A stretch of 55,118 nt of DNA. Source: Lachnospiraceae bacterium A4. Its GTDB lineage: Bacteria > Bacillota > Clostridia > Lachnospirales > Lachnospiraceae. Below, one piece after another: positions 9,436 to 38,580 of this stretch; the first letter of the stretch is position 1; the number at the start of each line of letters is the position of its first letter. The stretch lies in contig KE159529.1 in assembly GCA_000403215.2 (NCBI GenBank), positions 155,524 through 210,641 of the forward strand, given 5' to 3'. The position numbers and the translations under genes were made by a program. The notes under the pieces are model-generated. The model was not told the origin of the DNA. It saw only the letters and a program-made list of their open reading frames with translations, and did no database searches.

Positions 9436-9474
9436 AAGCATATTAAATTAATAGATTGGAACGGAGTGAGTACA

Positions 9475-9942
9475 ATGGTAGAAGTAGATACTAGAATATT
9501 TGGCAGAATTGCGATCGAGGAAGATAAAGTTATCCGTTTTGACCACGGCATCTTGGGATTTCCCGATTTGAGGGATTTTACATTAATCTTCAATGAGGAC
9601 AAAGGCGTGGAGTCAAGCATCAAGTGGCTTCAGTCCCTCCAAGAGCCTGCATTTGCCATGCCGGTCATGAACCCGGACCTTGTTGTGGCAGAGTACAGTC
9701 CGAATTTTGCAGCCGATCTCCTGAAACCGCTAGGGGATAATCTTGACAGCGAAAACATCTTAATGTTTGTCACCGTAACAGTGCCCAAGGATATCACCAA
9801 GACCACTGTGAACCTCAAAGCGCCGATTATTGTCAGTGTGGAAAACCGCAAGGCAGTGCAGCTAATCAGTGATGATGACGCCTACAGCGTAAAACATGCG
9901 ATCTATGAGCAGCTGATGGCACAGAAGGCAGTACAGGCATAA
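9475..9942 (+). CDS. fliW: Flagellar assembly factor FliW
   Basis: A 155-residue FliW (MVEVDTRIFGRIAIEEDKVI, then FDHGILGFPDL). FliW binds flagellin and, when flagellin is low, binds and inactivates CsrA; the three form a partner switch that sets flagellin translation. I start at the ATG at 9475. A GTG at 9466 is in frame but lies inside the Shine-Dalgarno GGAG at 9463-9466 and cannot be used with it. csrA follows 38 bases later, the usual pair. The presence of GGA hairpins before the flagellin genes in this window fits the switch. Confidence 0.92.
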   Translation: MVEVDTRIFGRIAIEEDKVIRFDHGILGFPDLRDFTLIFNEDKGVESSIKWLQSLQEPAFAMPVMNPDLVVAEYSPNFAADLLKPLGDNLDSENILMFVTVTVPKDITKTTVNLKAPIIVSVENRKAVQLISDDDAYSVKHAIYEQLMAQKAVQA

Positions 9943-13691: not shown

Positions 13692-13766
13692 CGGGCAAAA
13701 GGAATTGTCCGAGATCAGATTTGCCAGTTGCTTTGGCAAATCTTATACCGTGTAAACACAAGGAGG
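13692..13766 (+). promoter_or_regulatory. CsrA-type leader of flagellin 2
   Basis: Hairpin 1 (13692-13711) is CGGGCAA/TTGTCCG with loop AAGGAA, showing GGA. Hairpin 2 (13717-13743) is a perfect 10-bp stem, AGATTTGCCA/TGGCAAATCT. The Shine-Dalgarno ACAAGGAGG (13758-13766) is a second GGA site. It is almost the same as the flagellin 3 leader. Confidence 0.65.
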
Positions 13767-13790
13767 TATTTATTATGGTAGTACAGCACA
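13719..13790 (+). repeat. Direct repeat: flagellin 2 copy of the leader and 5' coding end
   Basis: Near-identical to 15950-16021 (flagellin 3). It covers the second leader hairpin, CCGTGTAAACACAAGGAGG, the ATG and first codons. A substrate for recombination that could delete or reshuffle flagellin genes. Confidence 0.8.
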
Positions 13791-15922: not shown

Positions 15923-15996
15923 CGGGCAAAAGGATTTGTCCGAGGTAAGATTTGCCAGTTGCTTTGGCAAATCTCATACCGTGTAAACACAAGGAG
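15923..15996 (+). promoter_or_regulatory. CsrA-type leader of flagellin 3
   Basis: Hairpin CGGGCAA/TTGTCCG (15923-15942) with loop AAGGAT, a second perfect 10-bp hairpin (15948-15974), then the ACAAGGAGG site at 15989-15997. The structure is the same as in flagellin 2; the only loop difference keeps the GGA. Confidence 0.65.
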
Positions 15997-16021
15997 GTAT
16001 TTATTATGGTAGTACAGCACA
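15950..16021 (+). repeat. Direct repeat: flagellin 3 copy of the leader and 5' coding end
   Basis: Partner of 13719-13790, differing by a few bases. The two copies are in direct orientation about 2.2 kb apart. Confidence 0.8.
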
Positions 16022-17746: not shown

Positions 17747-17812
17747 GTGGGCGAAAGGAGTCGCCTATGACCGTTGCAAGGTGAGGAGTCGCCGCGCAAC
17801 AATTACAAGGAG
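17747..17812 (+). promoter_or_regulatory. CsrA-type leader of flagellin 4
   Basis: Hairpin 17747-17768 has stem GGCGA/TCGCC with loop AAGGAG. Hairpin 17773-17800 has outer stem GTTGC/GCAAC and inner stem GGTGA/TCGCC with apical loop GGAG. The Shine-Dalgarno ACAAGGAGG follows. The primary sequence differs from flagellins 2-3 but the GGA-in-loop design is kept. Confidence 0.65.
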
Positions 17813-17820
17813 GTAATTTT

Positions 17821-26141: not shown

Positions 26142-26180
26142 CAATATCAGAACTAATTATTAATTATACAATATTAACAT

Positions 26181-26206
26181 GGGCACTCTTATGGGTAAGA
26201 GTGCCC
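26181..26206 (+). other. Strong hairpin between fliD and fliS without a T-run
   Basis: Perfect 11-bp stem GGGCACTCTTA (26181-26191) with TAAGAGTGCCC (26196-26206) and loop TGGG. It is followed by GCAGCAAAG, not Ts, so it is probably not an intrinsic terminator. It may stop 3' exonucleases, mark a processing site, or shape fliS translation (start 24 bases later). Confidence 0.7.
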
Positions 26207-26229
26207 GCAGCAAAGAAAGAAGGAATCGC

Positions 26230-26682
26230 ATGCTCAAACAAAATGGATACGCACAGTATCAAAGTGCCAAGATTATGACTGCATCGCCGGCAGAGCTGAC
26301 CCTGATGCTTTATGATGGGGCAATCAAGTTCGGAAACATTGCAATTCTGGGTATGGAGAATAACGATCCTGCCAAAGCACATGAGAACATTGTCAAGGTG
26401 GAGAAGATTATCCAGAATTTCAGGGACACGCTCGACAGGAAGTACGCCGTATCAAAGGATTTTGAGAATGTGTATGTGTATCTGTTGAGACGATGCCATG
26501 AAGCAAATATTAATAAAGATCCTGAAATTATGGAGGAGGTGCTCAGGCATCTGCGCTCTATGAGGGATAATTGGAAAGAAGTCATGAAGAAGGTTGCCGG
26601 AGATAAATCAAACCCAGTCGCACAGGCGAGAGTTGCAGGCGGACAGGGAAATGCGGCGGCATATAAGAGGACTGGGACATGA
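26230..26682 (+). CDS. fliS: Flagellin-specific chaperone FliS
   Basis: A 150-residue FliS. The family pattern is clear: YAQYQSAKIMTASPAELTLM followed by LYDGAIKFGNIA. FliS wraps the flagellin C-terminal D0 helix and stops it from polymerising in the cytoplasm. With five flagellins and a mini-flagellin here it may have several clients. I start at the ATG at 26230 (MLKQNGYAQYQ) behind AAGGAAT; the in-frame ATG at 26179 is inside the hairpin and adds a basic stretch that is not in the family. The last 25 residues are a Gly/Ala-rich tail. It overlaps the next gene by four bases (ATGA). Confidence 0.92.
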   Translation: MLKQNGYAQYQSAKIMTASPAELTLMLYDGAIKFGNIAILGMENNDPAKAHENIVKVEKIIQNFRDTLDRKYAVSKDFENVYVYLLRRCHEANINKDPEIMEEVLRHLRSMRDNWKEVMKKVAGDKSNPVAQARVAGGQGNAAAYKRTGT

Positions 26683-27155
26683 CAGAAAACTATCTGCAGA
26701 TTATGACGGAGAGTCTGGAAAAGAAACTTGATGTACTGGACAGAATAAGCGAGGTAAACAAACGTCAGTTTGAAGCTTCGACCAAACGGCCTTTTAACAT
26801 GGAAGCATATGATGCTGTTATGGAGGAGAAGGGAGCGTTGATTGAGGAGTTAAATCATCTTGATGAAGGATTTACATCAACGTATGAGCTTGTTCGGGAG
26901 GAGGTACAGAAGGAGCCGGAGAAATACCGTCAGCAAGTCCTTCGCATGCAGGAGCTTGTTCGGGAAGCAGTCGATAAAGGTGTCTCGATTGAAGCGCAGG
27001 AGAAACGCAACAAGGCTTCTATGGAGGCAGCACTGAATACAAAACGCAAGGAGATGCGGGAACGCAAAGTTTCTGCGAGTGTCGCCACAAAGTATTATAG
27101 TGCTGTCAGCAGATTGAACAATGTAGACCCACAGCTCATGGACCGCAAAAAATAG
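26679..27155 (+). CDS. FliT-like flagellar helical protein
   Basis: A 158-residue, all-helical, charged protein whose ATG overlaps the fliS stop as ATGA, so it is translationally coupled to FliS. It has long heptad-like stretches (about 1-35 and 75-140) and no cysteine or membrane part. In FliS-containing operons this slot is often held by a FliT-like chaperone, which binds FliD. Similarity to FliT in sequence is not obvious to me, so the name rests on length, helical content and position. It might also be a FlgN-like chaperone. A strong terminator follows. Confidence 0.7.
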   Translation: MTENYLQIMTESLEKKLDVLDRISEVNKRQFEASTKRPFNMEAYDAVMEEKGALIEELNHLDEGFTSTYELVREEVQKEPEKYRQQVLRMQELVREAVDKGVSIEAQEKRNKASMEAALNTKRKEMRERKVSASVATKYYSAVSRLNNVDPQLMDRKK

Positions 27156-27255: not shown

Positions 27256-28329
27256 ATGTCAAAGATACCAGTTACAGTTTGCATTATAGCAAAAAACGAG
27301 GAGAAGCATATTGAGAACTGCCTGAAACATTTAAAGAAATATGATTTGGAGGTCATCGTCACGGATACAGGCTCTACAGACCGCACGAAGGAGATTGCAG
27401 AGAAGTATGCGGACAAGGTGGTTGACTTTGAGTGGGTGAATGATTTTGCAGCCGCGAGGAACTATTGCACTTCATTTGCCAAAAACAACTGGATACTGGC
27501 GATTGACTGCGACGAGTATGTCACGAATATCGATGTGCGGATTCTGAGAATCCTGATGCAGAAATATCCGCGCTACACAGGCGTACTGCGTCTCAAGAAT
27601 CTGATTCCAGAGGGAAACAACGGTGCGAAGGGCTACGTCTCGGACGATGTGCCCAGGATGTACAACAAAAATTACTTTGAATTTGACTTTCCGATTCATG
27701 AGCAGCTCCGCTTCAAGGACAGAACAAAGTCGGATGATGTGATGGAGGCGTTTCTGCTTCCGATCGAGGTAATTCATCATGGCTATGCGCTCACCGGCGA
27801 TGACATGCGCAAAAAACAGGAGAGAAACATCAAACTCTTGGAGGGAAGCATCGAGGAGAATCCGACGAACGGATACTATTATTTCCAGATGGGACAGTCA
27901 AACTTTGTGCTTGGCGACGTTGACAAAGCGATCGAGGCATATGAGAAGGGAATGGAGCTTGTAGACAATCTGGACAATGTGTATGTGCCGGAGATGATTA
28001 TGTCCTTGGCAAAGGCATACACCGCCAAGAGACGGGTTGATGATGCGCTGAATTTTCTTGAGAAGTATGTGAAATACTACAATACGGCGAAGTTTCAGTT
28101 TGAATACGCTGAGCTGCTGCGCAAGAATAATCAGGTGCTCAAGGCGCTTGCCATGTACATCAAAGTGACGACCATGCAGGACGTGGAGACAATCGGTGAA
28201 AATCTGATAACGTGCTATGGCTGTATTATCAGCATTTATGAGTCTATGGGCAACAAGGAGATGGCAGAGTTATTCCACAACCAGTTTTTGCAGTGTGTGG
28301 CAGAAAAGGAACGCATCGTCAACAGTTAA
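27256..28329 (+). CDS. GT2 glycosyltransferase with C-terminal TPR repeats (1)
   Basis: A 357-residue protein. The GT-A domain (about 1-190) opens TVCIIAKNEEKHIENCLKHL, has VTDTGSTDRTKEIAE (the nucleotide-binding loop) and ILAIDCDEY (the DxD metal site, about 80-85). It is followed by helical repeats (about 195-350; ENPTNGYYYFQMGQSNFVLG, then DVDKAIEAYEKGM) of TPR type. Cytoplasmic. GT2-TPR proteins of this kind sit in flagellin glycosylation loci of other Clostridia (the TPR part may bind the protein acceptor). Together with a close relative at 31009 it flanks the mini-flagellin and flagellin 5. RBS GGGGAGGA. Sugar donor unknown. Confidence 0.85.
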   Translation: MSKIPVTVCIIAKNEEKHIENCLKHLKKYDLEVIVTDTGSTDRTKEIAEKYADKVVDFEWVNDFAAARNYCTSFAKNNWILAIDCDEYVTNIDVRILRILMQKYPRYTGVLRLKNLIPEGNNGAKGYVSDDVPRMYNKNYFEFDFPIHEQLRFKDRTKSDDVMEAFLLPIEVIHHGYALTGDDMRKKQERNIKLLEGSIEENPTNGYYYFQMGQSNFVLGDVDKAIEAYEKGMELVDNLDNVYVPEMIMSLAKAYTAKRRVDDALNFLEKYVKYYNTAKFQFEYAELLRKNNQVLKALAMYIKVTTMQDVETIGENLITCYGCIISIYESMGNKEMAELFHNQFLQCVAEKERIVNS

Positions 28330-28400
28330 GCGATACTTTAACCTTTTTGTGTCGAATTGTCTGAAATCAAATAAATTTACATAAAATTTCAAAATATTAG

Positions 28401-28429
28401 TTGACATAGTCAGACAATTCAGGTACAAT
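28401..28429 (+). promoter_or_regulatory. Sigma-A promoter of the mini-flagellin gene
   Basis: TTGACA at 28401-28406, 17-base spacer, TACAAT at 28424-28429. A nearly ideal vegetative promoter, unlike the sigma-28 promoters of flagellins 2-5. Confidence 0.85.
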
Positions 28430-28444
28430 GTAATTGTTAAGGGA

Positions 28445-28504
28445 GATGACATAACATGTCATCATAATAATACATAAAGGATTAATGTATTTCACAAGGA
28501 GGTA
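28445..28504 (+). promoter_or_regulatory. CsrA-type leader of the mini-flagellin gene
   Basis: First hairpin GATGACAT/ATGTCATC (28445-28463). Second hairpin AATACAT/ATGTATT (28469-28491) shows AAAGGATTA in the loop. The Shine-Dalgarno ACAAGGAGGT (28494-28503) follows. This is the same GGA-loop plus GGA Shine-Dalgarno design as for the full flagellins. Confidence 0.65.
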
Positions 28505-28509
28505 AAGGT

Positions 28510-28851
28510 ATGGATATCAGAAGTAATCTTATGTATGGAAACGTAGCAGTAAACGAAGCGTACACAGCGAAGGCAAACGCAGCAGCATCAAAAGAGAGCA
28601 GGCTTGCAACTGGAAAGAAATTGTCAGCATTGTCATCTGACGCAGCATCTCTTCAGATTAAGTCTAAGACAGGTGAAGTGCCAGACGCAGCGCTTGAGAA
28701 CATCAATGCAGCATCAAGCCTGGCAGCAGATGTGGCAAAGGCTGAGGAGATGATCCGCGAGGCGAACCGCCGGATTCTGGCACAGTCTGATGATTCAGTG
28801 CTTGCACAGGCAAATCAGACCTCTGATGCAGTGACAAAGCTTTTGGATTAA
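28510..28851 (+). CDS. Mini-flagellin: 113-residue protein with flagellin D0/D1-like ends only
   Basis: A complete small gene with its own promoter, leader and terminator. Residues about 27-53 (ESRLATGKKLSALSSDAASL, then QIKSK) line up with the D1 signature KLSSGYKVNRAADDAAGL of the flagellins. Residues about 80-113 (EEMIREANRRILAQSDDSVL, then AQANQTSDAVTKLLD) match the C-terminal D0 region with its LAQAGQSMLAQSNQ repeat. Everything between D1 N and D0 C in a normal flagellin, some 340 residues, is absent. There is no stop or frameshift, so it is not a broken pseudogene. It could be a filament-end subunit, a polymerisation modulator, a FliS or FliW ligand, or a decoy of the FliW-CsrA switch. 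Function is unknown. Confidence 0.82.
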   Translation: MDIRSNLMYGNVAVNEAYTAKANAAASKESRLATGKKLSALSSDAASLQIKSKTGEVPDAALENINAASSLAADVAKAEEMIREANRRILAQSDDSVLAQANQTSDAVTKLLD

Positions 28852-28875
28852 TGTTTATTCATATAAGAAGAAAGA

Positions 28876-28904
28876 AAGTCGGTCTTTTGACCGGCTTTTT
28901 TGTT
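28876..28904 (+). terminator. Terminator after the mini-flagellin gene
   Basis: Stem AAGTCGGTC (28876-28884) with GACCGGCTT (28889-28897), loop TTTT, then a run of T. Confidence 0.82.
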
Positions 28905-28927: not shown

Positions 28928-28984
28928 TAAAATTGAAAAATATTTGCCGATACATATAATATTTACATAACAGTTAGCCGATAA
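28928..28984 (+). promoter_or_regulatory. Two further sigma-28-like boxes upstream of flagellin 5
   Basis: TAAA (28928-28931)-N15-CCGATAC (28947-28953), and TAAT-N17-CCGATAA (28978-28984). Both are imperfect in spacing or sequence. With the good promoter at 29068-29094 they make a cluster of three. Confidence 0.45.
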
Positions 28985-29067: not shown

Positions 29068-29094
29068 TAAATTTTCAGAAAATTATTCCGATAT
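29068..29094 (+). promoter_or_regulatory. Sigma-28 promoter of flagellin 5
   Basis: TAAA at 29068-29071, 16-base spacer, CCGATAT at 29088-29094, then ATATACTGTAAAC as in the other flagellin promoters. Confidence 0.87.
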
Positions 29095-29247: not shown

Positions 29248-30879
29248 ATGGTAGTACAGCACAATCTTAAAGCTATGAATGCGAACAGAATGTTAAACAT
29301 TAACGCAAAAGCTTCATCAGGGTCTACAGAAAAACTTTCAAGCGGCTATCGCGTAAACAGAGCTGCGGACGACGCAGCGGGACTGGCTATATCAGAGAAG
29401 ATGAGAAAGCAGATTCGTGGTCTGACACAGGGCTCACGAAATGCAGAAGATGGTATCTCCTGTGTGCAGACAGCAGAAGGCGCACTTGCAGAGGTGCAGG
29501 ATATGCTCCAGAGAATGAACGAGCTGGCTGTACAGGCGGCAAACGGTACCAATTCCGTTACAGACCGTAAATATATTCAGGATGAGATTGACCAGCTTGT
29601 AACCGAGATTGACAGAGTTTCTGAGACGACAAAGTTCAATGAGACATATCTCTTAAAGGGCGACGAGGAGTTGCCGGAGAATCTGGTACATACATTTAAC
29701 TATGTGAAGGGCGACAAGATTGACCAGCTTGGAACTTCCTCTGTCTTAAATGCCAAGAGCGACAGAGTGATGGTGAACTACAATGGTGTGGATAACGTAT
29801 ATGTTGTGAGCGCCAGCATTAGTTCAGCAGGTTCAAAGGAGTCTATGACAGCAGATGTAAAGACAAAGGGATCTGATTTCACAAAATATCTTGCAAGCGG
29901 TGAAGTTGGAACGAGTTCTTCTGTCACAAGCGTTGCAATGAGTACTTCCTATGCAATGTTTAAGAACACAAATCTAAACGGCGTAGCATTGCAGAAAATG
30001 GCAAATGGTACAGTTTATGCGGATAAGGATGCATATATATACGATACAGAGACAAAGAATATCATTCATATCAAAGCAACAGAGGATTTAGGGCCTTATG
30101 TAAAGCATATTGACGGGGCAGATGATTCTACCTATACGATGGATAAGCGCTACAGGCTGCTGTACAATGTCAATCCAGAAGTGACTGGCTTTGAGGATAC
30201 ACTGGGTATGCCTAAGACAGTAGATCTGCTGACAAAGAACGATTTCCTCGGTGCGACATCAGAGAACCAGCTCTATAACAAAGACGGTGAGGCAATCACT
30301 GGCATGGGACTCTACAAATACTTTAATGAGAACGGGGATTATACAGGCGGCTTGTATGCAGACAAGGACGCAACCAAGAAGATTATTGAGAACGATACAA
30401 CCAGCTCACTGTACTATGGAAAATATATCACAAACCTCACCGAGAAGGTGACAGCGGCACTGACATTCTCTGTTCATGCAGGTGCAGATTCTGACCTGAA
30501 TAACAGAATCTCAGCGACAATTGATACCATGTCAGCAGCAGGACTTGGCGTGAACAAGTTAAAGAGCAGCTCGATCGGTATCGTAGATGAGACAGGTGAC
30601 AATGCGAGAGAGTCGATTGACGTAGTTGGAGAGGCATTGAAGATTGTATCCACCCAGCGTTCAATCCTCGGTGCGGTTCAGAACCGTTTGGAGCACACGA
30701 TTGCAAACCTCGATAACGTAGTTGAGAATACAACGGCTGCAGAGTCTGCAATCCGCGATACAGATATGGCTGACGAGATGGTGAAATTCTCGAACAACCA
30801 GGTGCTTTTACAGGCAGGCCAGTCCATTCTTGCACAGGCAAACCAGTCAAATCAGGGTGTACTTTCACTCTTACAGTAA
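29248..30879 (+). CDS. hag: Flagellin 5 (largest)
   Basis: A 543-residue flagellin, the largest and most divergent of the five. N-terminal D0/D1 (about 1-139) has KLSSGYRVNRAADDAAGLAI and LQRMNELAVQAANGTN; the centre (140-405) is a long domain with no similarity to the other four that I can see; the C-terminal part (from FSVHAGADSDLNNRI, about 407) ends NQGVLSLLQ. There are differences in D1 also (GLTQGSRNAEDGIS in place of GLTQASLNAEDGIS). It is separated from the other flagellins by some 10 kb and lies between two GT2-TPR genes, which suggests that it is the preferred or specially glycosylated filament protein. Inference only. Confidence 0.95.
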   Translation: MVVQHNLKAMNANRMLNINAKASSGSTEKLSSGYRVNRAADDAAGLAISEKMRKQIRGLTQGSRNAEDGISCVQTAEGALAEVQDMLQRMNELAVQAANGTNSVTDRKYIQDEIDQLVTEIDRVSETTKFNETYLLKGDEELPENLVHTFNYVKGDKIDQLGTSSVLNAKSDRVMVNYNGVDNVYVVSASISSAGSKESMTADVKTKGSDFTKYLASGEVGTSSSVTSVAMSTSYAMFKNTNLNGVALQKMANGTVYADKDAYIYDTETKNIIHIKATEDLGPYVKHIDGADDSTYTMDKRYRLLYNVNPEVTGFEDTLGMPKTVDLLTKNDFLGATSENQLYNKDGEAITGMGLYKYFNENGDYTGGLYADKDATKKIIENDTTSSLYYGKYITNLTEKVTAALTFSVHAGADSDLNNRISATIDTMSAAGLGVNKLKSSSIGIVDETGDNARESIDVVGEALKIVSTQRSILGAVQNRLEHTIANLDNVVENTTAAESAIRDTDMADEMVKFSNNQVLLQAGQSILAQANQSNQGVLSLLQ

Positions 30880-31008: not shown

Positions 31009-32091
31009 ATGTCAAAGATACCAGTATCAGTCTGTATCATTGCAAAGAATGAGGAAAAGTATATCGGAGAATGCCTGAAACGGCTCGAACCGTATGGATT
31101 TGAGATTGTTGTCACGGATACGGGTTCCACAGACCAGACCGTCGAAATAGCAAAACAATATACGGACAAGGTGTTTGAATTTGAGTGGGTCAGTGATTTT
31201 AGCGCTGCCAGAAATTTTTGTGTGTCACACGCGTCAAATAACTGGATTCTTGCGCTGGATTGTGACGAGTATGTGCACAGCATTGATGTGCCGTCGCTGC
31301 GCAGGATTATGCAGCAGTATCCGCGCGCGCTTGGCGAGATTCAGATGAAAAGCCTTGTGCAGAGCAGGGGCGTCACCTCTTACGCAGTGGACGTGGTCAG
31401 GCGGTTTTACAACAAAAATTATTATTTTTTCGAGGGTGCAATTCATGAGCAGCTTCAGGCAAAAGATGAGAAACAGCGGGGAAAAGCCTTTGAGGAGATC
31501 ACTCTCCCAATGGAAGTAATTCACCACGGCTACAATCTGACGCCAGAGGAAATGAAGAAAAAGAGCGAGCGGAACCTGACAATGCTGTATCAGGCGCTCG
31601 AGACAGACCCCAATAATACCTATATGCTGTATCAGGCGGCACACGCTGAGTCCATGCGGGGAAATTATTTAGAGGCAATACCGCTGTATGAGAGGGCGCT
31701 TGGCATGATAGATACTGTCACCTGTGAGTTTGAGCGGCTGATGATTATGGCACTGGGGGTCGATTATGTCAGAACAGGGCAGTTCCAGAAGGCTGTGGCG
31801 TTGATGGAGCGGTATGCAGACCAGTGCAAGACTGCAAAATATATGTTTACGCACGCCAATGTGCTGCTTGACAGCGGCGACCATCTGCGGGCACTGCTGC
31901 TGTATATTAAGACGATTATGATGCCAGACGCGGATACATTGGGCGTCAACAAGCTGCATTGTTTTGAAAATATTATCAGAATCTACACAGAGATGGGAAA
32001 CACAGAGATGGCAGCGCTTTTCCAGCAGCGCTATGAGGAGTGCAGACAGGAAAATGATAAGATTGTAACGGGTACGCCGTCCGGCGAGTAA
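31009..32091 (+). CDS. GT2 glycosyltransferase with C-terminal TPR repeats (2)
   Basis: A 360-residue paralogue of the protein at 27256. The N terminus is nearly the same (MSKIPVSVCIIAKNEEKYIG), with VTDTGSTDQTVEIA and ILALDCDEYV as nucleotide and metal (DxD) motifs. The second half (about 190-350) is helical, with TPR-like YMLYQAAHAESMRGNYLEAI and PLYERALGMI. The ends differ most in the TPR part, so the two may recognise different acceptors. It starts at ATG 31009 behind AGGAGG. It lies directly after flagellin 5 and before a convergent gene that shares a bidirectional terminator with it. Confidence 0.85.
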   Translation: MSKIPVSVCIIAKNEEKYIGECLKRLEPYGFEIVVTDTGSTDQTVEIAKQYTDKVFEFEWVSDFSAARNFCVSHASNNWILALDCDEYVHSIDVPSLRRIMQQYPRALGEIQMKSLVQSRGVTSYAVDVVRRFYNKNYYFFEGAIHEQLQAKDEKQRGKAFEEITLPMEVIHHGYNLTPEEMKKKSERNLTMLYQALETDPNNTYMLYQAAHAESMRGNYLEAIPLYERALGMIDTVTCEFERLMIMALGVDYVRTGQFQKAVALMERYADQCKTAKYMFTHANVLLDSGDHLRALLLYIKTIMMPDADTLGVNKLHCFENIIRIYTEMGNTEMAALFQQRYEECRQENDKIVTGTPSGE

Positions 32092-37659: not shown

Positions 37660-38580
37660 ATGATGGAAGAAAAGAAAACACCCAGAGCGGTAGCCAAGAA
37701 GCTCATTACGCCCAATATGCAGGAGTGGCTTCCTGTGTCGCCAAAGATGCCTGAAAAGCCACAGCAAAGTGCAGAGGAAGAGGCGCTGTTAGAGCCTGCA
37801 GCAGCGCAAGGGCTGGAATCTGAAAATCTTGAATCTGAGAATCTTGAATCGGAAGCTGAAAACCACAATGCCGGCAGCCTGGTTCAAAACTTGGAGGCAC
37901 AGGATTTTGAGTCGGATTTAAGAGAGCTGGACTCTGAAGAAGTTGATTCTGAGGAGCTGATCTCGGAAGAGGAAGAGCCGTCCAAAGAGACCTTTGTGTT
38001 TGCGCCGCCGGTTGAGGAGGAGCCGCACAGCAGAGTGGCGCTCAGCGACAATAAGAGCGGGCTTGGCATGGGCTGGTATGTCGTTCATACGTACTCAGGT
38101 TATGAGAATAAGGTAAAGGCAAATATCGAAAAGGCAATAGAAAACAGACACCTTGAGAATGAGATCCTCGAAGTGAGGGTTCCGCTGCAGGATGTCATGG
38201 AGCTCAAAAACGGCGTGGAGAAAACGACACAGAAGAAGATGTTCCCGGGATATGTGCTGCTTCACATGGACGCGGACAACAACGACGCGTGGTATGTGGT
38301 TCGAAACACGAGGGGCGTTACCGGTTTTGTCGGACCGGGAAGTAAGCCTGTGCCGCTCACGGAGGCAGAGCTCAAAGCGCTTGACTTCGGCGTTGATACC
38401 GCTGTAGAGTTTGCAGAGGGAGATGTGATCAGTGTCACCGCGGGCGTGTGGAAGGACACTGTGGGGACTGTCCAGAAGATTGATGCAGCGAGACAGACCG
38501 TCACGATCAATGTTGAGATGTTTGGGCGTGAGACACCTGTCGAGATTAATTTCACAGATGTGAAAAAGATGTGGGATTAA
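37660..38580 (+). CDS. nusG: Transcription termination/antitermination factor NusG with a long acidic N-terminal extension
   Basis: A 306-residue NusG. The conserved part starts at GWYVVHTYSGYENKVKANIE near residue 138; the NGN domain (about 138-245) has KKMFPGYVLLHMD and VRNTRGVTGFVGPG, and the KOW domain (about 250-300) has FAEGDVISVTAGVWKDTVGT. This is the usual 170-residue NusG. Before it lies an extension of about 135 residues: a basic start (KKTPRAVAKKLITPNMQEWL), then low-complexity acidic sequence with repeated LESEN and EEVDSEEL segments. The ATG at 37660 follows AGAAGGGG, with no in-frame stop, so the extension is probably translated. NusG binds RNA polymerase in the cytoplasm. Confidence 0.9.
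   Translation: MMEEKKTPRAVAKKLITPNMQEWLPVSPKMPEKPQQSAEEEALLEPAAAQGLESENLESENLESEAENHNAGSLVQNLEAQDFESDLRELDSEEVDSEELISEEEEPSKETFVFAPPVEEEPHSRVALSDNKSGLGMGWYVVHTYSGYENKVKANIEKAIENRHLENEILEVRVPLQDVMELKNGVEKTTQKKMFPGYVLLHMDADNNDAWYVVRNTRGVTGFVGPGSKPVPLTEAELKALDFGVDTAVEFAEGDVISVTAGVWKDTVGTVQKIDAARQTVTINVEMFGRETPVEINFTDVKKMWD

What the first reader, a model, noticed from the sequence alone, without database searches (positions are those of the whole stretch)
28401..28904. A 113-residue mini-flagellin with its own promoter, CsrA-type leader and terminator
The protein aligns with the two ends of the full flagellins nearby (ESRLATGKKLSALSSDAASL against the D1 signature; the last 34 residues against LAQAGQSMLAQSNQANQGVL) but lacks about 340 residues between them. 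It has an intact frame, an almost ideal sigma-A promoter, a two-hairpin leader with GGA in a loop, and a terminator, so it is a designed gene and not a relic. A protein with only the polymerising ends could cap, dope or block the filament, compete for FliS, or act on the FliW-CsrA switch. I know of no described role.
Basis: partly seen in the sequence, partly recalled or inferred. Interest (0 to 1): 0.88.

Follow-up and report, generated by a model that had tools for sequence, protein, structure and literature searches.

The report
Tiny flagellin made of polymerising ends
Some gut Lachnospiraceae carry a small, conserved gene for a flagellin cut down to its two inner ends; it shares the flagellin genes' translation switch but not their promoter, and looks more like a regulator or chaperone ligand than a building block of the filament.

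Summary
Window 28510-28851 (+) encodes 113 aa; residues 59-112 pass Pfam Flagellin_C (26.4 bits, cut-off 23) and residues 29-54 match flagellin 27-52 in register (1 of 200 shuffles as good, though hhalign probability is only 18%). It is not a relic: 15 of 38 same-genus genomes hold a full-length orthologue and 6 more a diverged short form; median dN/dS is 0.16. No short form was seen outside the genus within the limits. ACAAGGAGGTA before an ATG occurs 7 times in the 6.96-Mb genome: at this gene, at four window flagellins, and twice elsewhere; it resembles the CsrA SELEX consensus. So the gene shares the flagellins' probable CsrA switch, but has a sigma-A-type promoter and no sigma-D-like site. 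And one face of its C-terminal helix is kept while the other, uncharged in flagellins, is charged. I judge it most likely a non-polymerising flagellin mimic that binds FliS and/or FliW and tunes the FliW-CsrA switch (0.4). No binding was tested.

The parts
28357..28364 (+). upstream half-site TTGTCTGA, inverted copy of the one in the promoter spacer
   Evidence: exact pair TTGTCTGA-N35..60-TCWGACAA at the promoters of 8 of the 15 orthologues; 6 other places in the genus, and control hits in 4 genomes
28401..28429 (+). sigma-A-type promoter TTGACA-17-TACAAT; 28401-28420 TTGACATAGTCAGACAATTC is a conserved block
   Evidence: 11 of 12; block the same but for one A/T position in 15 of 15; one exact copy in the genome, three others at 3 mismatches, as in the control
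28445..28463 (+). leader hairpin 1
   Evidence: (13 of 15 orthologues aligned): 6 consensus pairs, 2 with a change on both sides
28469..28491 (+). leader hairpin 2 with GGA (28479-28481) in the loop; sequence more conserved than structure
28494..28504 (+). ACAAGGAGGTA: Shine-Dalgarno overlapping a CsrA-consensus-like site
   Evidence: 5 exact copies in the window, all before flagellins or this gene; 7 before an ATG genome-wide, control 0; consensus from PMC7652899
28510..28851 (+). 113-aa D0-only mini-flagellin
28872..28901 (+). intrinsic terminator
   Evidence: orthologues
28928..28952 (+). sigma-D-like promoter TAAA-N15-CCGATA, beyond the terminator, facing flagellin 29248
29068..29093 (+). 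second sigma-D-like promoter facing flagellin 29248
29248..30879 (+). downstream full-length flagellin (543 aa), without the ACAAGGAGGTA element
26179..26682 (+). FliS, export chaperone of flagellin
26679..27155 (+). FliT-like by position only (no Pfam match; NCBIfam only chance-level)
9466..9942 (+). FliW
   Evidence: 120.7 bits
9981..10205 (+). CsrA
   Evidence: 90.3 bits
10952..10962 (+). same ACAAGGAGGTA element before flagellin 10969
13758..13768 (+). same element before flagellin 13775
15989..15999 (+). same element before flagellin 16006
17805..17815 (+). same element before flagellin 17821

Best explanation
It is a flagellin paralogue reduced to the D0 domain plus the spoke sequence, no longer built to polymerise. 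It is made from its own sigma-A-type promoter, so not only in the late sigma-D phase, and its translation is under the same CsrA-type control as four flagellin genes of the same region. I think it works in the cytoplasm as a flagellin mimic: its C-terminal helix occupies FliS and/or its N-terminal part occupies FliW. Occupied FliW would leave CsrA free to hold down translation of the flagellins and of the mimic itself; export or loss of the mimic would lift this. Shown: gene, conservation, promoter and leader sequence, the shared element, the charge-switched helix face. Inferred: that CsrA binds the leader, that FliS and/or FliW bind the protein, the direction of the effect, and that it cannot polymerise.
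For: Intact and selected: 15 of 38 same-genus genomes; dN/dS median 0.158 over the 65 of 105 pairs with dS 0.05-1.5. Flagellin, FliS or FliT-like genes lie near it in 14 of 15 orthologue loci. ACAAGGAGGTA-N2-9-ATG: 7 in the genome, 5 of them four flagellins and this gene, reversed-pattern control 0. ACAAGGAGGT in 43 same-genus loci: 27 hits = 15 minis, 10 flagellins, 2 counted as other, one of which reads as a flagellin start. It fits SELEX RUACARGGAUGU (PMC7652899 passages) at ACA, GGA and GU. GGA-in-loop hairpins also precede the 3 window flagellins folded, of 5. FliW and CsrA are in the window. Flagellin regions kept: B. subtilis N60 and N72 flagellin bind FliW, and FliS grips D0-C (PMC6070490 Results and Discussion). 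Helix face: charge at 77, 84, 87, 88, 94, 95 and 110 in 16-22 of 22 short forms and at most 1 of 47 flagellins; the switched positions of helix 76-100 cluster opposite the kept ones (P 0.002 and 0.0006, sets chosen after seeing the columns).
Against: No interaction was tested; the single-chain model is poor (pLDDT 63.7, pTM 0.26). Residues 1-28 are not recognisably flagellin; the spoke match has hhalign probability only 18%; the conserved IRGL stretch just after the spoke (R57 in B. subtilis by recalled numbering) is absent. By recalled numbering, Hag positions L300 and R304, whose mutation impairs filaments, are changed too. The FliS contact with D1 is lost. 17 of 38 genus members show no such gene, so flagella do without it. 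Flagellin 29248, right downstream, lacks the shared leader element, and the GGA-in-loop hairpin is absent in 5 of 6 relatives folded. The charged residues could instead line the filament channel; no coordinates were at hand to decide.
Confidence: 0.4

Rival explanations
1. Minor structural subunit: exported by FliS and inserted at the hook-filament junction, the tip, or as a D0-only inner tube, where missing D1-D3 is the point.
For: The LAQANQ..V..LL end and the hydrophobic face are kept; flagellar context; all 55 PDB sequence hits are flagellins.
Against: Sigma-A-type promoter instead of the sigma-D-like sites before flagellins; charge on the opposite face; D1, the outer tube of the filament, is absent.
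Confidence: 0.22
2. Secreted flagellin-like factor with an outside role (matrix, host interaction), like the exported flagellin-homologous proteins of Vibrio.
For: Flagellin-homologous proteins are exported and act in biofilm in Vibrio (PMC6692518, abstract and outline only).
Against: CsrA-type coupling and position near FliS point to flagellin control; nothing here shows secretion.
Confidence: 0.13
3. The mRNA matters most: the leader soaks up CsrA, and the small protein is secondary.
For: C. jejuni flaA mRNA titrates CsrA (PMC4894983 passages); promoter and leader are well conserved.
Against: The protein itself is under purifying selection; leader hairpin 2 is not conserved as a structure.
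Confidence: 0.12
4. Decaying fragment of a flagellin gene.
For: Only the ends of flagellin remain, and flagellin C-terminal fragments do occur in the genus (L080 5557-5862, L081 1433-1756, L093 9799-10107; L261).
Against: 15 intact orthologues, dN/dS 0.16, conserved promoter block, present in all 11 members of one clade that entered the tree; the fragments carry CD1 sequence and QAGQS- or QSVNA-type ends, not DD.
Confidence: 0.02

Closest known systems
Bacterial flagellin (Hag/FliC; Pfam Flagellin_N + Flagellin_C)
   Same: C-terminal D0 helix, in-register spoke match, and the ACAAGGAGGTA leader element shared with four window flagellins.
   Different: No D1-D3; Flagellin_N below cut-off; sigma-A-type promoter; charged helix face.
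YvzB of Bacillus (flagellin-like partial paralogue; recalled, only a search listing seen)
   Same: Short flagellin relative in a flagellated Firmicute.
   Different: As recalled, YvzB is about twice as long and lacks the N-terminal part; not compared here.
EspA, and type III needle proteins (SctF)
   Same: Reduced helical relatives or analogues of flagellin handled by chaperones; EspA has been discussed as a 'mini-flagellin' (PMC1084347 passages); needle likeness recalled and from PMC6070490 Discussion.
   Different: EspA is described as lacking D0, the reverse of this case; no needle protein among the 55 PDB sequence hits.
Hag-FliW-CsrA homeostasis loop of B. subtilis
   Same: FliW, CsrA and FliS are all in the window; leader with GGA sites, one over the Shine-Dalgarno.
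   Different: An additional small flagellin-like node with its own promoter; none was found described in searches.

Membership tests
Flagellin | Flagellin_C domain above Pfam cut-off | tested here: met
   26.4 bits against 23 for the window protein; of 8 other short forms scanned, 2 pass and 6 do not
Flagellin | Flagellin_N domain above Pfam cut-off | tested here: not met
   no match listed; best of the 8 relatives 13.9 bits against 26.6
Flagellin | D1 domain for filament packing | tested here: not met
   113 aa; only ends align
Flagellin | sigma-D (sigma-28) promoter | tested here: not met
   none of 8 sites precedes the gene; 6 of 8 precede flagellins; flagellin 10969 has none either
Flagellin | polymerises into a filament | not testable with these tools
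   helix-face analysis argues against, by inference
CsrA-controlled flagellin-type leader | GGA over the Shine-Dalgarno matching the SELEX consensus | tested here: met
   one mismatch in the ACARGGAUGU core
CsrA-controlled flagellin-type leader | second, upstream GGA in a hairpin loop | tested here: inconclusive
   in the window and 1 of 6 relatives
CsrA-controlled flagellin-type leader | CsrA binding in vitro or in vivo | not testable with these tools
   none
Hag-FliW-CsrA loop component | binds FliW or FliS | not testable with these tools
   only single-chain folding was available
Pseudogene or flagellin relic | disrupted frames or neutral evolution | tested here: not met
Type III needle protein | sequence relation to SctF | tested here: not met
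   all 55 hits named flagellin, flagella or FliC, a few fused to a chaperone or cap

The most novel reading that the evidence does not exclude
A sentinel flagellin: a cheap, polymerisation-dead flagellin made before the sigma-D phase that occupies FliS and FliW and keeps CsrA free to silence flagellin translation; when the export gate opens to filament-class substrates, the sentinel leaves first, FliW is freed, CsrA is caught, and flagellin translation starts. That would add a dedicated export-test molecule to the Hag-FliW-CsrA loop.
Probability: 0.14. Interest if true: 0.85.

Novelty: new variant of a known kind. Interest (0 to 1): 0.62.

Why it matters
Flagellin homeostasis in B. subtilis is held to rest on three partners in near 1:1:1 ratio (PMC6529632, abstract and passages). 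A natural flagellin reduced to its chaperone- and FliW-facing ends, placed under the same translational switch but a different promoter, would be an extra input to that loop. It is also a natural minimal construct for asking which parts of flagellin carry chaperone binding, export and polymerisation. Motile Lachnospiraceae make flagellins that the gut immune system sees in unusual ways (PMC13353774, passages), so how they meter flagellin may also bear on host recognition.

Tried and rejected
Relic or pseudogene: rejected. Phage origin: one weak PHROGs match, E 0.043. Known RNA family at the leader: 6 matches at E up to 1, none near its gathering score. A regulon sharing the promoter block: the 20-mer occurs once exactly; other sites at 3 mismatches are at control level. 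Paired half-sites: 8 at orthologue promoters, 6 elsewhere in the genus, control hits in 4 of 38 genomes, so the other 6 look like chance. Structure route: AlphaFold2 on A1 (9 rows) gave two helices at pTM 0.26, too poor for fold searches, which I did not run.

Wider distribution: profile A2 (17 rows) over 397 family genomes listed flagellins and short frames; the list was truncated and at most 11 candidates per genome were scored, so diverged short forms in other genera could be missed. In one search, 0 of 60 genomes outside the genus had a match at E 1e-15. FliS-anchored check: 60 regions fetched (59 outside the genus) out of the 95 of 200 genomes with a FliS over the cut-off, several cut short by contig ends, plus 30 short loci mostly from the same genomes; no short form outside the genus. 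Of the 17 genus members without the gene, 15 had a FliS region examined, some ending soon after the FliT-like gene; G305 and G312 rest on the profile search alone. Not every short frame in the truncated lists was opened. Literature: searches listed no description of a D0-only flagellin that I recognised; the library lacks most subscription papers.

Full report
What is there. The window lies in a 6.96-Mb genome, at G000:C3:155524-210641; the 8 named contigs holding close relatives are all Lachnospiraceae. It carries FliW, CsrA, FlaG and FliS by Pfam, a FliD and a FliT-like gene named by position, and five flagellins of 454-543 aa (four were scanned with Pfam and confirmed). Between a family-2 glycosyltransferase gene (27256-28329) and the flagellin at 29248 lies an ORF of 113 codons, 28510-28851. 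Residues 59-112 match Flagellin_C above its cut-off. A profile of the 15 orthologous N-termini aligns residues 29-54 to flagellin 27-52, the spoke after the N-terminal D0 helix, at score 22.96 (probability 18%, E 0.0013); 1 of 200 column shuffles reached that score and the reversed profile scored 11.8. Residues 1-28 are only predicted helical, in a poor model. So it is a flagellin reduced to D0 plus spoke, with the N-terminal half the less certain part.

It is a selected gene. A scan of 84,980 species genomes for close relatives gave 8 loci, 68-93% identical. A profile over all 38 held genomes of the genus gave full-length orthologues in 15 (E at most 4e-36) and diverged short forms in 6 more (G299, G302, G310, G311, G322, G328), with a second, diverged copy in G300. 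A weaker short frame in G328:C1 and 20 other short or odd frames opened later are ordinary flagellin C-termini, as are three ORFs of 101-107 aa in L080, L081 and L093 (the L080 one is that same G328:C1 frame). Among the 15, median dN/dS is 0.158 over the 65 of 105 pairs with dS between 0.05 and 1.5 (range 0.039-0.283); dS from the window gene is 0.85-2.08 for 13 of 14. Context is conserved: FliS and/or the FliT-like gene lie upstream on the same stretch in 11 of 15, and a flagellin is the next recognised gene downstream in 9, with the contig ending soon after the gene in 3 more. In G333, G304 and G300 a glycosyltransferase follows directly; G300's orthologue has no recognised flagellin or FliS within the 14 kb read. 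The diverged forms of G328, G299, G322 and G302 sit right after the FliT-like gene; those of G310 and G311 lie in 12-13 kb without a recognised flagellar gene. On a FliS plus FliT-like tree (34 genus rows, 3 outgroup rows) 11 orthologue-bearers form one clade (support 0.994) with no member lacking it; its two sister clades, 7 genomes, lack it; G304 and G300 carry it in another part of the tree, so old age with losses, or transfer, is needed; the four diverged forms next to the FliT-like gene group together (support 0.893). Several genomes are incomplete, so absences are tentative.

Distribution. Outside the genus I saw no short form in 299 genomes drawn from the family with the single protein, in the 60 non-genus genomes with profile A1, in 397 family genomes with profile A2, or in 59 FliS-anchored regions plus 30 short loci. 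Lists were truncated and candidates capped; 11 short frames outside the genus that I opened were flagellin ends. Very diverged forms could have been missed.

Expression. The promoter matches 11 of 12 consensus bases with a 17-base spacer. The block TTGACATAGTC(A/T)GACAATTC is the same in 15 of 15 orthologues and occurs once exactly in the genome; an inverted half-site lies upstream in 8. I read this as an operator for a regulator not identified here. Sigma-D-like sites (TAAA-N13-17-CCGATA) occur 8 times in the window against 0.29 expected; 6 lie before flagellins and none before this gene, though flagellin 10969 has none either. The leader ends in ACAAGGAGGTA. In the window this 11-mer occurs exactly 5 times, before four flagellins and this gene. 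Before an ATG it occurs 7 times in the genome (reversed-pattern control 0); the other two precede a sugar-kinase-like and a GntR-like protein, named by eye. In 43 same-genus loci (499,917 bases) ACAAGGAGGT gave 27 hits: 15 minis, 10 flagellins and 2 counted as other, one of which reads as a flagellin start. The published CsrA SELEX consensus is RUACARGGAUGU with ACA and GGA invariant, and in B. subtilis CsrA represses hag through two leader sites, one over the Shine-Dalgarno (PMC7652899, passages). The three window flagellin leaders folded (of five) put GGA in hairpin loops; here GGA lies in a loop in the window sequence and in 1 of 6 relatives folded. Downstream flagellin 29248 lacks the element.

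Protein chemistry. I aligned the C-termini of 22 short forms and 47 same-genus flagellins (the flagellins were picked by end motifs, which leans to canonical ones). Positions 78, 81, 82, 85, 86, 89, 90, 93, 96, 97, 99 and 100 keep their character. Positions 77 (M to K/R), 84 (Y/F to E/Q), 87 and 88 (N/A/Q to R), 94 and 95 (GQ to DD) and 110 (S to K/E) are charged in 16-22 of 22 short forms and in at most 1 of 47 flagellins. On a helical wheel of positions 76-100 the switched positions (77, 84, 87, 88, 91, 94, 95) and the kept ones lie 156 degrees apart (P 0.002 for clustering, 0.0006 for the split; both sets were picked after seeing the columns, so the P values are optimistic). This fits a helix that still meets one flagellin partner, FliS or its own N-terminal helix, but no longer packs as in a filament. 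Which face meets what was not tested.

Mechanism. In B. subtilis the N-terminal 60 or 72 residues of flagellin suffice for FliW binding, FliS wraps D0-C, and FliW held by flagellin leaves CsrA free to repress (PMC6070490, Results and Discussion); the loop works at near 1:1:1 (PMC6529632, passages). A protein made of those two ends, translated under the flagellin-type switch but transcribed from a sigma-A-type promoter, is best read as an extra ligand in this loop. Against it stand the weak N-terminal similarity, the loss of the IRGL stretch, changes at Hag positions needed for normal filaments (recalled numbering), and the lack of any binding data. Rivals are a minor structural subunit, a secreted factor, and an mRNA sponge for CsrA as in C. 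jejuni flaA (PMC4894983, passages).

Verdict. By sequence it belongs with flagellins, but it misses the features that make a filament subunit, so I call it a new variant of a known kind rather than a flagellin proper. The searches named found no description of it in the library held.

Noticed in passing
G000:C12:714104-714658 (L007): A second flagellin followed by a diverged FliS below the family cut-off; 34 of 38 genus members have two FliS matches.
   Followed up: no
L082 7307-7621, L085 6476-6790, L079 5507-5860, L086 7151-7504: The diverged forms next to the FliT-like gene share another promoter, TTGACA-17-TATACT with TTGACATTTTCTGTCAA in it, plus an upstream AATTGT..ATACAATT palindrome; a dedicated regulator is likely.
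   Followed up: partly
L083 7069-7401 (-), L084 6580-6912 (-): In G310 and G311 the short form lies in about 12-13 kb with no recognised flagellar gene.
   Followed up: no
L097, L098, upstream of the short gene: A perfect palindrome with 15-base arms, TTTACATAATTTTTT/AAAAAATTATGTAAA, just before the promoter.
   Followed up: no
window 27256-28329 and 31009-32091: Glycosyltransferases resembling the SunS peptide S-glycosyltransferase model below its cut-off, the first with TPR repeats; relatives lie next to flagellins in many genus loci.
   Followed up: partly
window 37660-38580: A 306-aa NusG-domain protein, possibly a specialised NusG paralogue.
   Followed up: no
L255 (G304:C58), L261 (G329:C11): A flagellin frame with an internal stop and a 67-aa flagellin end fragment, so flagellin decay does occur in this genus.
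   Followed up: partly
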